Below, in pieces: positions 2,594 through 8,579 of a stretch of DNA of 64,000 nt. The notes under the pieces are model-generated. The model searched no databases, was not told the DNA's origin, and saw only the letters and a list, made by a program, of their open reading frames with translations. Source of the stretch: Actinomycetota bacterium (GTDB lineage: Bacteria; Actinomycetota; Acidimicrobiia; Acidimicrobiales; AC-14); contig JBFMCT010000009.1 of assembly GCA_040754375.1 (NCBI GenBank), positions 1 through 64,000 of the forward strand, given 5' to 3'. The position numbers and the translations under genes are program-made. Positions within the stretch are counted from its first letter, which is position 1; each line of letters starts with the position of its first letter.

Positions 2594-2748
2594 CCCGCCG
2601 TCGCGGCTGTCCACGGCGGACCTACCCCACGACGCCGGCCCTCGTGCTGCCGTCCACCGCGGTCTCAGGCCGTACCTAATGGGACCTTCGCCTCTTCTCA
2701 CCGCCCTGCGAGGACTGGATCATTCGAGAGCAGAGGAGGTGGCTCTCG

Positions 2749-3048
2749 ATGCTCGGTTCGCTTTCGGGACGGGTGGTTGTCATCGGGACGGTGGCGGTCG
2801 CCCTTGCGGGCGGTGTCGACGCGGTCAGGGGCGACAACGCCGACCTCCTCGTCGTCTTCCTTCTCGTGGCCGCGCTGCAGCTTGCGTTGCTGGTACGCCT
2901 CCAGTTCGGCCGGCGACCGGTCCCGGTCCGGCCTGATCTGGCGGCCTGGCTGGAAGCTCGTTCCGCGCTGACCGGAGAGCCGCCCGCGGCGATAGCCGAG
3001 CGGAGCATCGCCGAGTACCGGGCCAGCCTGCGCGGGGATAACGGGTGA
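2749..3048 (+). CDS. Small membrane protein coupled to the giant fusion gene
   Basis: Product of 99 residues: two closely spaced hydrophobic segments (about 5-25 and 32-48) and a cytoplasmic tail with PDLAAWLEARSALTGEPPAA and AERSIAEYRASL, which looks like a short helical or ribbon-helix-helix-type segment. An AGGAGG ribosome-binding site sits just upstream of the ATG. The stop codon overlaps the GTG start of the next gene (GTGA at 3045-3048), so the two are translationally coupled and probably act together. I do not recognise a named family. It may help membrane insertion or assembly of the 1844-residue partner; that is inference. Confidence 0.7.
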   Translation: MLGSLSGRVVVIGTVAVALAGGVDAVRGDNADLLVVFLLVAALQLALLVRLQFGRRPVPVRPDLAAWLEARSALTGEPPAAIAERSIAEYRASLRGDNG

Positions 3049-6000
3049 CGACTTCGCCGTCCGATGCCCCACTCGTAGTCCTCCCTGGCGACCAGGTCGA
3101 CCCGGCCGTCCTTGGCGGTAAGGCGGGGTCGCTGTGGCGACTGGTCGCCCTGGGGTTCCCGGTCCCGCGCCTGGCGGTCGTCACCGCCGACGCCTACCGG
3201 CGTGCCGTGTCGGGGCCCCTGAAGCAGTGGCTGGTGCACCTCCCACCGACCGACACCGACGAAGAGGGCCAGCGGGCCCAGGTCGACGCCGCCTTCGCCG
3301 CCCTCGTACTGCCCGACGACCTGACCGAAGGGGTGGTCCGGGCGGCTGAGACCATCGCCGGGTCCGGCGGGGCCCTGGCGGTTCGTTCGTCGGCCAGCGC
3401 CGAGGACCTTCGTGGTGCCTCGTTCGCGGGTCAATACCGTTCGTTCCTCGACGTAGTGGGACCAGCGGCAGTCCTGCAGGCCCTGCGCCTGACGTGGGCC
3501 TCTCTCTGGCACCCGGCGGCTCGGCGCTACCGGCTCGAGCAGGGGTTGGGCGACGAGGAGGCGGCTATGGCCGTGATCCTCATGGAACTGGTGCGACCCC
3601 TGCGGGCCGGGGTGGCCTTCACAGTCGACCCCGCGGGCGACGAAAGCGACGTGCGGGTCGAGGCGGTCGCGGGCTTCGCTGACAAGTTGGTGGGCGGAGA
3701 GGTCACGCCGGAGGCCTTCGTCGTCCCCCGTGCCGACCCTGACCGAGGGGGCTCACCCTTGGTGGCGGCCGTGGCGCGCCTGGCCCTCGACGCCGAGACG
3801 GCCTTCGGCTGCCCCCAGGATGTCGAGTGGGCTTGGGACGGCACCGCCGTCTATGTGGTCCAGTCCCGGCCCATCACCGTCGCCGGCCCGCCTGACGACG
3901 ACGGGTTCGACCGCTGGAGCCCAGCGGCCGACTACACGACCACTGGGATCGCCGAGGCGCTCCCGGGGCTGCTGGCGCCGCTCGTTTGGGACACGGCCGG
4001 CCGGGCCATCGACGAGGCCTTTCTCTGCTTGCTCGCCGACCTCTCGGCCCTCCCCTCGTCCGGTGGCGACCTTCACGCCCTGGCCCGTGTCCGGGCGCAG
4101 GCCGCCCTCGACTTGGGGCTTCTTCGCCGGGCAGCCGCGGTCATCCCAGGAGCCAGCGCCGGTGCCGTGGAGCGGAGCCTCTTTGGAGGCGACGGGGAGC
4201 CCGAGACCGGGGCCGAGGCGGGGACAGGGAGTGACGCTCGTCGGGCCCGGTTGTTGCGACGCCTGGCCCACGACTGGCGGGTGGCTCGCCTTCGTCACCA
4301 GGCGCGGGGCGCCGGAGAAGTGTTCCGGCTGGCAACCATCGAGATCGTCGGCCACGGCCGGCACCTCGGTTCGCTCTCCGACTCTGCCCTGCTGGGCTAC
4401 CGAGCCCGCCTCGCTGACATCTTGGCCCGGGGGACGAGAGCCGAGGTGGCCGTGGCCGCATGCGCGGTAGCAGCTTACGATCGCTTGGAGGCCTTCCTGG
4501 CTCCGTACGTGGGGAGCGAGGAAGCGTCGGGTCTGGCCGCTCGGCTGACGCAGGGGACCGACGCGCCGGTGGTGCTGCGCCGGTGGATGGAGCTGGCTGC
4601 TGAGGCTCAGCGCACGCTTACGGGCCGCCGAGCCATGGCGGCGCACCGATGGAGTGAGGCCTGGACCATCCTGGCCGCAGATGGCGAGTCGGCCAAGCGG
4701 TTCCGGTCGCGGTTCGAAGAGACGATCCGGGCCGCTGGGTCGCGGTCGGTCATGGGCGGTCCCTCCTGGGTCGAGGAGCCGGACTTGGCCTGGCGCGCGG
4801 TGCGGGCGGCCACGGCCCGGCACCCCGGGGCTCCCGACGGGGCTTTGGACGCCCGCGCCGCCGAGGACCTCCTGTCGGCCACGCCCCGCTGGCAGAGGTT
4901 GAACGTCCTTACCGGAGTCCTCGTCGACACCCAGGGCCTGCTCCTGCGCCGCCACGTCGACGATGCGCGCGACCTGCTCCGGGAGCGGGAGGCACTCAAG
5001 TCCGCGCTCTTGAGCATGGGCGGAGAGATCCGTCGTGTCCACCTGGAGATCGGCCGGCGCCTGGCGGAGAGGGGTGGCATCGCCGAGGCAGCCGAGATCG
5101 ATTACCTCGGGACGGCCGAACTGTCCGCGGCCATGTCCGGGCACGGGCCCTCGCGGGCTGAGTTGCTCCGTCGGCACCGGCGCTTTGGCCATGCGGCCGC
5201 GTTGCCGCTGCCCGCCCGGTTCGTGGGCCGGCCCCCGGTCGCCCCCGCCCCGGCCCCCGCCGGTGATCACTTCCAGGGTTGGGCGGCAAGTGCGGGGAGC
5301 TACGAGGGCCCGGCGCGGGTCGTGACTAGTGCCGACGGCCAGCTCGAGCCCGGCGAGATCCTGGTCGCCCATACGACCGACCCGTCGTGGGGCCCCCTGT
5401 TCCTCACGGCCGGAGCACTCGTGGTGGAACAGGGAGGACCGCTGTCCCACGCCGCGGTGGTCGCCCGGGAACTGGGCCTGCCGGCGGTGGTCAACGTCAC
5501 CGGCATCGTCGAGCGAATCAGCGGGGGGCACCCCACGGTGAGCGTCGACGGCAGCAGCGGCGAGGTCGTAGTGATCGACGATGCTCCCTCCGGTGGCCAA
5601 CAGGATGGGGTGGACCAGGGAACGGGCCCCGCGGCAGGGCCGAGCGTAGCCGGGCCGAGCGTGGCCGGGCCGAGCGTGGCCGGGCCGGCCCCAGCCGGGC
5701 CACCGCCTGTGGAGGGGGCCCCGGCCGACGGCCACAGCCGGGGCGCGCTGGCGGCCCGAGCGAGGACGGAGGCGGAGCAGGAGGCCCTGCACGTGTTTGT
5801 CCCCGCCGTGATGGGGGCCGGGCTCTTGTACTCGCTGCTCGTGCTGGCCCGGGAATGGACGGGCCGCGTCCTCGGCCGGCACCGACGCCAGGCCCTGGTC
5901 CGGGCCCAGGCCCGCCTCGTGGCCGACGAGGTGCTGGGCGGCGAAGAGGCAGCCATCGCACCGGACGGCTCCCGGGCCACCCGGACGCTGCTCGCCGTCG

Positions 6001-8579
6001 TGGGTGCCGTCTTCCTCGGGTTCGCCGTTTACGTACTCCCCGGAGCAACGTTCAACTACCTGCGCCCAGGGGGCTACATCTCCGAGATCGCCTGGATCCT
6101 CGCCGTCGCCCTGTTGCTGGTGGTCGTCGTAGGGACGGCCGGTTTCGTGTTCGGGCTCTCCGCCTTGGGCCGGCGTCCGCTCGCTCCGGCCGCCCGCCGG
6201 GTGGTGCAGGTGAGCGCGGTGGTGCGCAACGGAGCGGACCACCATCCCGCCCACCACGCGTGGGGTGCCCGCTGGCACGGGACCGCGTCGGTCCTCCTGC
6301 TGGCCGTCGCCGCGGCCAGCGTCGTTCTCACGCTCGCCGTCGCCATGGGAAACCCCGTCGTGCACCGCGCTGACGTGACCCTCGCCGATCGGGTCCGTGA
6401 TACCGGTCCTGTCCATCTGCTCACTCGAGCCGACGACCTGGGGCGCACCGGCGTAGCGGTGGTGACCAGCTTGATCACGGTTGTCGTGCTCGGGCGCCGC
6501 GCCCCCCGGCTGGCGGCCGCCTACCCAGCCGCGGTCCTGGCCGGCATCGTGGTCAACGTCCTGCTCAAGGGGGTGGTGGACAGGCCCCGGCCGATCAGCC
6601 CGGTCGTGGGCACGGCGCTGTCGTCGTACCCAAGCGGCCATACCATCCAGGCGGTCCTCCTGGCCGTCTTCGTCACCCTGGCGGTCCACGAGGTCAGCCG
6701 CCATAGGTGGCTGACGGCGGTGACCGGCTTGACGCTTGGGGCCGGGGCGGCCGGTACGAGCTGGGCACGGGTGAGCTTCGCCGCCCACTGGCCCTCCGAT
6801 GTGATTGGTGGTGCCTTGATCGCCACCCTCGTCGCGCTGATTGCGATGCTGATCATCCACCCGCGGCCGGCGCACCACAGCGGTTACCGACCGCTGCTGC
6901 TGCTCCCCGAGGTGGTCGCGGGGCGCGCCCGCGTACTGGCCCGGGGGTTGGCCGTGGTGGCCGTGGTGGCCGTAGCTGCCCTTTCGGTCAGCGTGGGACT
7001 GCCGCGCGCCCCCGAGGGGGCACTTTCCGACGGTGGCATCGACGACCTGGTCCAGATCATCCTGCTCCTGTTGTCGGCCGTGGCGGCTGCCGTGGCCTGG
7101 AGGTGGGAGGCCGTGGGAGCGGTCATGCTGGCTGCTACCGGCACCGCCATGGCGCTGTTCGCCTCCTTGCAGTACCAGCCGGCGGCGGCCCTTCTGGTGG
7201 CCTTGGCCTTCGTCACCCCTGCCCTGCTCTTCTGGGTCGCCTGGCAGCACGGGCAACCTCTTCGCTCATTGGTTGCCGCAGCCGCAGCTGCTGCGGTTCT
7301 CACCGGAGGGACCTGGGCCGGCGCGTCAGCCATCTACGACCACTACTTCGGCCCGGCCCACCCCCAGTCGCCCCTGGTCGCCATCCGCTCGGACACGCTT
7401 TCGTGGGTGTGGGCGGGTGGGCTGAGCGCCGATGGCGTCACTGTTACGGCCAAGCTCAGCAGGCCCGGTCCCGCCGAAGTCTGGATATCGGCATCGCCCG
7501 ACGGGGAAGCCGCCCGACTCGTCCCCACTAGGGGGTCGGACCCGAGCGATCCTCGGGTGGTCACAGCCGTCGTCGGCGGCTTGGCCCCAGCCACGTCGTA
7601 CTACTACGGGGTGGCCGTCAACGGAGTGCTCGACCGTTCATTCTTGGGCCGCGTGAGGACTCCCGGAGAGGGTCCCTTCTCGTTCACGGTGGCTTTCGGC
7701 GCCTGCGCCCGCACCGGGTCGAACGGCCTCGTTTTCGACGCGATCGCTGGGGTCGACCCGCTGCTCTACCTCATCACAGGCGACTTCCACTACGGGAACG
7801 TGGCAGAACCCGACGGTGAGCGGCTTCGGGCCGTGCTCGACCGTACCCTGAGTGCGCCGGCCCAGCAGGCCCTGTACCTGAAGGCACCCATCGCCTACGT
7901 ATGGGATGACCACGACTACGGCGGGAACGACGCAGATGCGTCCTCCCCGGCCCGCCCGATGGCCCAGGCGGCCTACCGCTCCTATGTTCCCCACGGCGTG
8001 CTGGCTAGTGGTGACGGTATCCAGCAATCCTTCGTGATAGGCCGTGCCCGCTTCATCCTCACAGACACGCGTTCATACCGCAGACCCGCTCTAGACGGTA
8101 GCGGGACGATACTCGGCGAAGACCAGCTGGCGTGGTTCGAAGAAGAGCTTCTCGCCGCCCGTGACGCCGGCCAGCTCGCCATCTGGGTGAGCCCGACACC
8201 GTGGATCGCCGAGGCGAACCCGGCCGCGGACTCGTGGGCGGGCTTCGATCAGGAACGTCGGCGGGTGGCCGACTTCATCGACCGAAATGGCATCAGGCTG
8301 CTGATGCTGAGCGGCGACGCCCACATGGTGGCGATCGACGACGGCACCAACAGCGGCTACGCCTCCAGTGGGGCCTCCGGCTTCCCGGTCGCCCATGGAG
8401 GAGCACTCGACCGCCCCGGCAGCCTGAAGGGCGGGCCCTACAGCCATGGTGCCTTCCCGGGGGCGGGGCAGTTCGGCGTGCTGGAAATCGACGACGACGG
8501 GGGCGACCGGGTGCGCGTGCGCATCACGGGCCGCAACTGGAAGGACGAGATCCTGGTCAGCTTCGAGGCGTGGCTCTGA
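3045..8579 (+). CDS. Tripartite fusion: rifampin-phosphotransferase-like + PAP2 phosphatase + PhoD-type phosphatase
   Basis: An 1844-residue protein with three enzyme modules. (1) Residues about 10-280 form a PEP-synthase-type ATP-binding domain (GGKAGSL with Lys26, AVRSSASAED with Arg114, VQSRPI near 271). A helical middle follows, then a swivelling phosphohistidine domain (about 755-845) with GGPLSHAAVV, His802. This order and size match rifampin phosphotransferase, not full PEP synthase, which has an extra barrel. (2) After a Gly/Pro/Ala linker come 13-14 hydrophobic segments (915-1430). Among them is a PAP2 site: K1175 in KGVVDRPRP, YPSGH with His1199, and R1242...H1248...D1252. (3) Residues about 1445-1844 are a PhoD-like metallophosphatase with an Ig-like lead, GDFHYGN (1579), DDHDYGGND (1621) and GDAHM (1757). 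Motifs look intact in all three. Substrates are unknown. The frame is continuous, with no internal stop. Confidence 0.88.
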   Translation: MTTSPSDAPLVVLPGDQVDPAVLGGKAGSLWRLVALGFPVPRLAVVTADAYRRAVSGPLKQWLVHLPPTDTDEEGQRAQVDAAFAALVLPDDLTEGVVRAAETIAGSGGALAVRSSASAEDLRGASFAGQYRSFLDVVGPAAVLQALRLTWASLWHPAARRYRLEQGLGDEEAAMAVILMELVRPLRAGVAFTVDPAGDESDVRVEAVAGFADKLVGGEVTPEAFVVPRADPDRGGSPLVAAVARLALDAETAFGCPQDVEWAWDGTAVYVVQSRPITVAGPPDDDGFDRWSPAADYTTTGIAEALPGLLAPLVWDTAGRAIDEAFLCLLADLSALPSSGGDLHALARVRAQAALDLGLLRRAAAVIPGASAGAVERSLFGGDGEPETGAEAGTGSDARRARLLRRLAHDWRVARLRHQARGAGEVFRLATIEIVGHGRHLGSLSDSALLGYRARLADILARGTRAEVAVAACAVAAYDRLEAFLAPYVGSEEASGLAARLTQGTDAPVVLRRWMELAAEAQRTLTGRRAMAAHRWSEAWTILAADGESAKRFRSRFEETIRAAGSRSVMGGPSWVEEPDLAWRAVRAATARHPGAPDGALDARAAEDLLSATPRWQRLNVLTGVLVDTQGLLLRRHVDDARDLLREREALKSALLSMGGEIRRVHLEIGRRLAERGGIAEAAEIDYLGTAELSAAMSGHGPSRAELLRRHRRFGHAAALPLPARFVGRPPVAPAPAPAGDHFQGWAASAGSYEGPARVVTSADGQLEPGEILVAHTTDPSWGPLFLTAGALVVEQGGPLSHAAVVARELGLPAVVNVTGIVERISGGHPTVSVDGSSGEVVVIDDAPSGGQQDGVDQGTGPAAGPSVAGPSVAGPSVAGPAPAGPPPVEGAPADGHSRGALAARARTEAEQEALHVFVPAVMGAGLLYSLLVLAREWTGRVLGRHRRQALVRAQARLVADEVLGGEEAAIAPDGSRATRTLLAVVGAVFLGFAVYVLPGATFNYLRPGGYISEIAWILAVALLLVVVVGTAGFVFGLSALGRRPLAPAARRVVQVSAVVRNGADHHPAHHAWGARWHGTASVLLLAVAAASVVLTLAVAMGNPVVHRADVTLADRVRDTGPVHLLTRADDLGRTGVAVVTSLITVVVLGRRAPRLAAAYPAAVLAGIVVNVLLKGVVDRPRPISPVVGTALSSYPSGHTIQAVLLAVFVTLAVHEVSRHRWLTAVTGLTLGAGAAGTSWARVSFAAHWPSDVIGGALIATLVALIAMLIIHPRPAHHSGYRPLLLLPEVVAGRARVLARGLAVVAVVAVAALSVSVGLPRAPEGALSDGGIDDLVQIILLLLSAVAAAVAWRWEAVGAVMLAATGTAMALFASLQYQPAAALLVALAFVTPALLFWVAWQHGQPLRSLVAAAAAAAVLTGGTWAGASAIYDHYFGPAHPQSPLVAIRSDTLSWVWAGGLSADGVTVTAKLSRPGPAEVWISASPDGEAARLVPTRGSDPSDPRVVTAVVGGLAPATSYYYGVAVNGVLDRSFLGRVRTPGEGPFSFTVAFGACARTGSNGLVFDAIAGVDPLLYLITGDFHYGNVAEPDGERLRAVLDRTLSAPAQQALYLKAPIAYVWDDHDYGGNDADASSPARPMAQAAYRSYVPHGVLASGDGIQQSFVIGRARFILTDTRSYRRPALDGSGTILGEDQLAWFEEELLAARDAGQLAIWVSPTPWIAEANPAADSWAGFDQERRRVADFIDRNGIRLLMLSGDAHMVAIDDGTNSGYASSGASGFPVAHGGALDRPGSLKGGPYSHGAFPGAGQFGVLEIDDDGGDRVRVRITGRNWKDEILVSFEAWL
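5637..5696 (+). repeat. 15-bp in-frame tandem repeat in the fusion-protein linker
   Basis: Three near-identical copies of a 15-bp unit (GGGCCGAGCGTGGCC) and a fourth diverged copy encode GPSVA repeats. They sit exactly between the phosphohistidine domain and the first membrane segment of the fusion protein. Copy number changes would stay in frame and only alter linker length. Confidence 0.8.

What the first reader, a model, noticed from the sequence alone, without database searches (positions are those of the whole stretch)
3045..8579. One polypeptide joins a rifampin-phosphotransferase-like enzyme, a PAP2 phosphatase and a PhoD phosphatase
Seen directly: a single uninterrupted 1844-codon frame with intact-looking motifs of all three modules (His802 phosphohistidine loop; PAP2 K1175/H1199/R1242/H1248/D1252; PhoD DDHDY and GDAH). 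From family knowledge: the first module is cytosolic and transfers ATP-derived phosphate; PAP2 and PhoD act at or outside the membrane on phosphoesters. Inference: a phosphoryl-relay or lipid/teichoic-acid phosphate-handling machine spanning the membrane. I know of no described protein with this architecture.
Basis: partly seen in the sequence, partly recalled or inferred. Interest (0 to 1): 0.85.

Follow-up and report, generated by a model that had tools for sequence, protein, structure and literature searches.

The report
Fused kinase–phosphatase from a dormancy operon
One very long bacterial protein that joins an ATP-using phosphate-adding enzyme to membrane-bound phosphate-removing enzymes turns out to be a rare fusion of genes that in relatives sit side by side, apparently switched on with the low-oxygen "dormancy" genes; its substrate is unknown, so it is a good experimental target.

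Summary
The 1844-codon ORF (3045-8579, +) is real. Pfam finds PPDK_N, PEP-utilizers, PAP2, DUF7670 and PhoD in one frame; PAP2 and PhoD motifs are intact here.

In nearly all relatives the same content is a compact three-gene cassette: A, a small 2-TM protein (2749-3048 here); B, a dikinase with full rifampin-phosphotransferase (RPH) architecture; C, a membrane PAP2-DUF7670-PhoD protein. B and C normally overlap by ATGA/GTGA. Complete fusion is seen only here. One MAG fuses B to PAP2 but not PhoD; a Nocardia case is doubtful.

B's catalytic residues and C's PhoD ligands are near-invariant. PAP2 is degenerate or missing in about half of relatives. So the core is dikinase plus PhoD, not a three-module relay.

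Cassettes carry DosR/DevR/OsdR-type boxes upstream and often lie among dormancy-regulon genes (USP, P-type ATPase, PfkB, Hsp20). The window's genome has clear DevR and DevS relatives, though the window's own box is imperfect.

Best reading: a fused form of an undescribed hypoxia/dormancy-regulon cassette that phosphorylates a substrate from ATP inside the cell and hydrolyses phosphoesters outside. Substrate and direction are unknown. A frameshift artefact at the linker is not excluded, and predicted topology sits badly with one continuous chain.

The parts
2681..2694 (+). Imperfect DosR/DevR/OsdR-like box GGGACCTTCGCCTC, 68 bases before gene A
   Evidence: 12/14 to GGGACYWWNGDCCC and to the classic GGGACTTTNGNCCC. 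Not significant alone in the window: 38 sites with up to 2 mismatches vs 42 expected. Strong only as a family-wide pattern.
2734..2739 (+). AGGAGG ribosome-binding-like site of gene A
   Evidence: read from sequence
2749..3048 (+). Gene A: 99-aa protein, two hydrophobic segments plus a conserved tail that looks like a ribbon-helix-helix motif (resemblance only); overlaps the next ORF by GTGA
   Evidence: homologues next to B in 24 cassette loci; invariant R61, D63, L64, R85; no significant Pfam match for the window copy
3045..8579 (+). Fused B-C ORF, 1844 aa
3102..3914 (+). B: ATP-grasp domain (aa 20-290), K26, R114, E261, Q273, R275
   Evidence: PPDK_N; residue columns
3915..4964 (+). B: acceptor-binding region (aa 291-640), the less conserved part
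   Evidence: mean pairwise identity 40% vs 49% and 53% for the flanking domains
4965..5594 (+). B: R648-E649-x2-K652 and swivel phosphohistidine domain with H802 (codon 5448-5450)
   Evidence: invariant in 22 sequences; PEP-utilizers
5595..5759 (+). Gly/Ala/Pro-rich linker with three GPSVA repeats; junction that is two genes in relatives
5779..5795 (+). AGGAGG, 8 bases, then in-frame GTG (5793): possible internal start for a separate C protein
   Evidence: read from sequence; start list
5760..6194 (+). C: N-terminal membrane region (hydrophobic segments about 917-935, 982-1000, 1018-1036)
   Evidence: hydropathy; model
6291..6860 (+). C: PAP2 domain with canonical KX6RP, PSGH, RX5HX3D here
   Evidence: fold match to 5jki
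6939..7325 (+). C: DUF7670, five predicted helices
7392..8576 (+). C: PhoD phosphoesterase domain, predicted extracytoplasmic; C1554, D1580, Y1583, D1622, H1623, D1758, H1760
   Evidence: best fold match 2yeq PhoD

Best explanation
The ORF is a fused form of the last two genes of a conserved three-gene actinobacterial cassette (A: small membrane protein; B: RPH-type dikinase; C: membrane PAP2-DUF7670-PhoD) that belongs to the DevR/DosR (OsdR)-type hypoxia/dormancy regulon. Likely working: at low oxygen DevR~P turns the operon on (inferred from boxes and neighbours). B takes the beta-phosphate of ATP on H802 and passes it to an unidentified, probably amphipathic acceptor at the inner membrane face (inferred from RPH homology and invariant residues). 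The PhoD domain, held outside by the membrane part of C, hydrolyses a phosphoester there, with PAP2 as an optional second phosphatase (inferred). The two activities would work in opposite directions on the same or linked substrate. I favour recycling or remodelling of an amphipathic/lipid phosphoester in non-growing cells: cleave outside, let the alcohol cross, re-phosphorylate inside. A and the B-C fusion would keep B at the membrane. Shown: ORF, homology, cassette, residue conservation, motif enrichment, gene neighbours. Inferred: regulation, topology, substrate, direction.
For: Cassette A-B-C in diverse Actinomycetota. Gene order varies but B and PhoD stay linked, including PhoD-B-A in one Acidimicrobiia family. 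Fusion of B to TMn-PAP2 in one frame in a second MAG, L036. B, C and A distances correlate (r 0.60-0.64; Mantel for B-C 0 of 2000). B model (pLDDT 84.8): best PDB matches are RPH-Lm over the whole chain; K26, H802 and R648/E649/K652 invariant, as RPH needs (PMC4844700). C model matches PhoD 2yeq and PAP2 5jki. Box: 12 of 22 loci at >=12/14 to classic GGGACTTTNGNCCC vs 2.5% of control segments; near-perfect in PhoD-first cassettes; close to the listed OsdR target CGGGACCTTCGGCCCT, and a dikinase (SCO0208) is in that regulon (PMC5069765). Dormancy-type neighbours in 17 of 25 cassette loci vs 0 of 24 controls. The window's genome has DevR (vs 3c3w, 3e-74) and DevS (vs 2y8h, 1e-53) relatives between two USP genes.
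Against: The window's own box is imperfect and not significant alone, no exact box was found near its DevR/DevS locus, and no dormancy gene lies in the window. Neighbour queries came from the cassette loci and controls are mostly other phyla, so that contrast is inflated. Nothing identifies the substrate or shows that B and PhoD share one. C contains no known transporter domain. No complete B-C fusion was found elsewhere.
Confidence: 0.45

Rival explanations
1. The fusion is an assembly/sequencing frameshift or recent mutation; the cell makes separate B and C, with C starting at an internal GTG (5610-5793).
For: 17 relatives use a 4-base ATGA/GTGA overlap and two more a longer overlap. Frame +1, the ancestral frame of B relative to C, has a stop at 5647 inside the linker; in-frame GTGs exist, one (5793) with AGGAGG 8 bases upstream. 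Coding signal in the repeat stretch is ambiguous. Predicted topology puts the N-terminus of C outside if segment 917-935 crosses the membrane, incompatible with a cytosolic B on the same chain. L027 shows B-C in frame together with a broken C, i.e. such errors occur.
Against: Frame 0 scores best over the linker as a whole and strongly so for 5709-5790. Genome is 97.5% complete, which argues against frequent indel errors. A clean B-TMn-PAP2 fusion exists in L036.
Confidence: 0.45
2. The reader's three-module phosphoryl relay across the membrane.
For: All motifs intact in this copy; canonical PAP2 motif here, L002 and L003.
Against: At least five relatives lack two or more PAP2 catalytic residues and several more lack one of the two catalytic His; PAP2 is absent in L022, L029, L053 and the PhoD-first cassettes. 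Neither PAP2 nor PhoD is known to accept phosphate from a phosphohistidine domain (family knowledge).
Confidence: 0.05
3. Outward direction: B inactivates a phenolic or antibiotic-like compound by phosphorylation inside and PhoD reactivates it outside after export.
For: RPH and other relatives phosphorylate hydroxylated small molecules (PMC4844700, PMC12167813, PMC11768653).
Against: No conserved biosynthetic or exporter gene in the cassette; neighbours are dormancy genes instead.
Confidence: 0.15
4. Phospholipid-to-storage-lipid switch: PhoD cleaves phospholipid, PAP2 makes diacylglycerol; B acts on a separate metabolite.
For: PAP2 enzymes feed triacylglycerol synthesis in Streptomyces (PMC3599759). 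In Blastococcus, where C's PAP2 is degenerate, further PAP2-bearing genes follow, one with an LPG_synthase_TM region.
Against: PAP2 is the least conserved enzymatic part; no lipid enzyme is in the cassette itself.
Confidence: 0.2

Closest known systems
Rifampin phosphotransferase (RPH-Lm, 5hv1/5fbs)
   Same: Domain order ATP-grasp, helical acceptor domain, C-terminal swivel His; K26 and H802; R-E-x2-K phosphate site
   Different: About 20% identity; far below the NCBIfam RPH cut-off (247 vs 999 bits); acceptor domain divergent; linked to a membrane phosphatase
PhoD alkaline phosphatase/phosphodiesterase (2yeq)
   Same: Fold and metal-ligand motifs
   Different: 17% identity; attached to DUF7670 and a multi-helix membrane domain instead of being a free secreted enzyme
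PAP2 membrane phosphatase (B. subtilis PAP2-type phosphatidylglycerolphosphate phosphatase, 5jki)
   Same: Six-helix fold; intact catalytic motif in the window
   Different: Embedded in a larger chain; catalytic residues lost in many orthologues
DosR/DevR and OsdR dormancy regulons
   Same: Operator-like boxes and neighbours (USP, P-ATPase, PfkB, Hsp20); OsdR regulon includes a dikinase (SCO0208)
   Different: In the papers consulted I saw no description of this PhoD/PAP2 cassette as a member

Membership tests
Rifampin phosphotransferase (RPH) | ATP-grasp / acceptor domain / C-terminal swivel His order | tested here: met
Rifampin phosphotransferase (RPH) | Catalytic Lys, His and acceptor-phosphate Arg/Glu/Lys | tested here: met
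   K26, H802, R648/E649/K652 invariant
Rifampin phosphotransferase (RPH) | Overall similarity at RPH level (>42% for clade A; NCBIfam cut-off) | tested here: not met
   about 20% structural-alignment identity; 247 vs cut-off 999 bits: an RPH-superfamily dikinase, not an RPH
PEP synthase / PPDK | Pyruvate/PEP-binding C-terminal barrel with central His domain | tested here: not met
   His domain is C-terminal to the acceptor domain; matches to PEPS/PPDK are partial
PhoD | Pfam PhoD above cut-off and conserved metal ligands | tested here: met
PhoD | Extracytoplasmic location | tested here: inconclusive
   positive-inside reading and five DUF7670 helices favour outside
PAP2 | KX6RP, PSGH, RX5HX3D | tested here: met
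   met in the window, not in many orthologues
DosR/DevR regulon | Operator-like box upstream | tested here: inconclusive
   enriched in the family; imperfect in the window
DosR/DevR regulon | DevR and DevS in the same genome | tested here: met
DosR/DevR regulon | DevR-dependent induction by hypoxia | not testable with these tools
   needs expression data or EMSA

The most novel reading that the evidence does not exclude
A membrane-spanning bifunctional machine induced in dormancy that takes up an alcohol released outside by PhoD and traps it by dikinase-driven phosphorylation inside: a phosphohistidine-based group translocation unrelated to the sugar PTS, here made as one polypeptide.
Probability: 0.1. 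Interest if true: 0.9.

Novelty: new variant of a known kind. Interest (0 to 1): 0.55.

Why it matters
Most RPH-superfamily dikinases have no known substrate. A conserved, compact cassette that ties one to an extracytoplasmic phosphoesterase and to the dormancy regulon gives a direct way to look for one. If induction is confirmed, it adds a phosphate- or lipid-handling step to actinobacterial hypoxia survival that the papers consulted do not describe.

Tried and rejected
Anti-phage defence: no PADLOC match. Phosphate-starvation (PHO box) control: best scores no better than shuffles. Looking for the same fusion in relatives: no same-genus genome is held; the family lacks the cassette; samples of 395 class and 396 phylum genomes gave no second complete fusion. 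Literature on this architecture and on DUF7670: none found. The full-length genome search failed, so halves were searched; two other calls had frame mistakes (8, 12). N-terminal topology could not be settled: model confidence there is low. The extra N-terminal parts of L122 and L125 gave no informative Pfam domain beyond PhoD/DUF7670.

Full report
OBSERVATION. The ORF at 3045-8579 is open for 1844 codons. One chain carries PPDK_N, PEP-utilizers, PAP2, DUF7670 and PhoD.

CASSETTE. Relatives from one scan of genome contigs almost never have one ORF. They have two: B (about 780-900 aa, dikinase) and C (about 950 aa, membrane PAP2-DUF7670-PhoD). In 17 loci the stop of B overlaps the start of C by four bases (ATGA/GTGA) and in two more by 16-22 bases. 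A third gene, A, about 100 aa with two hydrophobic segments and a conserved tail, adjoins B in 24 loci. In the window A is 2749-3048 and overlaps the big ORF by GTGA. Hosts include Nocardia, Blastococcus, Actinokineospora, Virgisporangium, Planobispora, Knoellia and Acidimicrobiia MAGs. Distribution is sporadic: 14 of 395 class genomes, only some with the PAP2 part, 4 of 396 in a phylum sample, none of nine other family members.

VARIANTS. PhoD-B-A order without PAP2 in L029, L053, L141, L142. C without PAP2 in L022 and L124. PAP2 as a separate upstream gene in L046. B fused to TMn-PAP2, with PhoD as the next gene, in L036. The constant pair is B and PhoD.

IS THE FUSION REAL? For: frame 0 carries the best coding signal over the linker overall, strongly at 5709-5790; the genome scores 97.5% complete; L036 shows that B can be joined to C in frame. 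Against: no complete fusion elsewhere; ambiguous signal in the GPSVA repeats; a stop in the ancestral frame at 5647 and several in-frame GTGs, one with AGGAGG at 8 bases. Topology is a further problem. Positive-inside reading gives PAP2 sites and PhoD outside, and then the N-terminus of C outside if 917-935 spans the membrane. B without a signal peptide cannot be outside, so either that segment does not cross or the two parts are made separately. The model is not confident there (pLDDT about 40-50). I leave this near even.

WHICH PARTS MATTER. Near-invariant: K26, R114, E261, R275, H802, R648/E649/K652 in B; C1554, D1580, Y1583, D1622, H1623, D1758, H1760 in PhoD. Not conserved: PAP2. The C3 His is replaced in L010, L017, L019, L043 and L050, and the C2 His in L005, L008, L017, L043 and L050 (alignment-dependent for single cases). 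Mean pairwise identities: PAP2 36%, DUF7670 41%, PhoD 53%, ATP-grasp 49%, acceptor domain 40%, His domain 53%. This argues against a relay needing all three modules.

STRUCTURE. B folds with pLDDT 84.8 and matches RPH-Lm over its whole length; global TM-scores are only 0.34-0.48, as expected if domains are swivelled. C folds with pLDDT 80.5 and matches PhoD 2yeq and PAP2 5jki. RPH chemistry is ATP + acceptor to phospho-acceptor + AMP + Pi, with Lys22, His825 and Glu666/Arg667 important (PMC4844700). That paper expects distant clades to keep phosphotransfer but not rifampin specificity.

REGULATION. Upstream of A many loci carry a palindrome like GGGACCTTCGGCCC. With the classic DosR pattern GGGACTTTNGNCCC, 12 of 22 loci score at least 12/14 within 160 bases, against 2.5% of control segments; with a pattern adapted after seeing the data, 16 of 22 against 3.7%. 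PhoD-first cassettes have near-perfect boxes (GGGACCTATGTCCC in L029, GGGACCTAAGTCCC in L141). OsdR of Streptomyces has the listed target CGGGACCTTCGGCCCT, with binding shown for that intergenic region, and its regulon includes a dikinase, SCO0208 (PMC5069765). Neighbours within 8 kb are USP, P-type ATPase, PfkB, Hsp20, zinc ADH, CMD or flavodoxin in 17 of 25 cassette loci and 0 of 24 controls, while a neutral ABC query is 4 vs 4; L008 also has a GAF-GAF-HisKA_3 kinase. Caveat: the queries came from these loci and most controls are other phyla. In the window's genome, contig C6 has DevS-like and DevR-like genes between its only two USP genes. The window's own box is imperfect and not significant by itself, and no dormancy gene lies in the window.

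MECHANISM. Cytosolic ATP-driven phosphorylation and extracytoplasmic phosphoester hydrolysis are coupled by gene linkage, co-evolution and fusion. The direction is open. I favour recycling of an amphipathic or lipid phosphoester in non-growing cells; the lipid hint is that in Blastococcus, where C's PAP2 is degenerate, additional PAP2-bearing genes, one with an LPG_synthase_TM region, lie just downstream. Substrate and direction are inference.

VERDICT. Observation right. The joined protein is a rare or possibly artefactual fusion. The stronger finding is the conserved dikinase/PhoD cassette and its probable membership of the dormancy regulon.

Noticed in passing
L148 (own genome contig C6, 30000-42000): 5616-7580 +, about 5748-6434 -, USP ORFs near 5317-5736 and 7637-8269: DevS-like and DevR-like genes (heme-GAF match to 2y8h, DevR match to 3c3w) between the genome's only two USP genes, next to an MscS channel.
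   Followed up: yes
L050 13149-15761 (also L017, L043): PAP2-RIO-LPG_synthase_TM protein directly downstream of the cassette in Blastococcus, where the cassette's own PAP2 is degenerate.
   Followed up: partly
L027: Nocardia otitidiscaviarum assembly reads B and C in one frame but breaks C further on; probably sequencing errors.
   Followed up: partly
L020, L030, L031, L033, L047, L070: Stand-alone DUF7670-PhoD membrane proteins without dikinase nearby; a wider family.
   Followed up: no
window 5638-5697: Three 15-base repeats coding GPSVA in the linker; one copy has GTA instead of GTG, synonymous in frame 0 but a stop in frame +1.
   Followed up: partly
L128, L131 (own genome C8, C20): Exact GGGACCTTCGGCCC sites elsewhere in the genome, genes not identified; the total (8 vs 4 for the reversed control) is a weak excess.
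   Followed up: no
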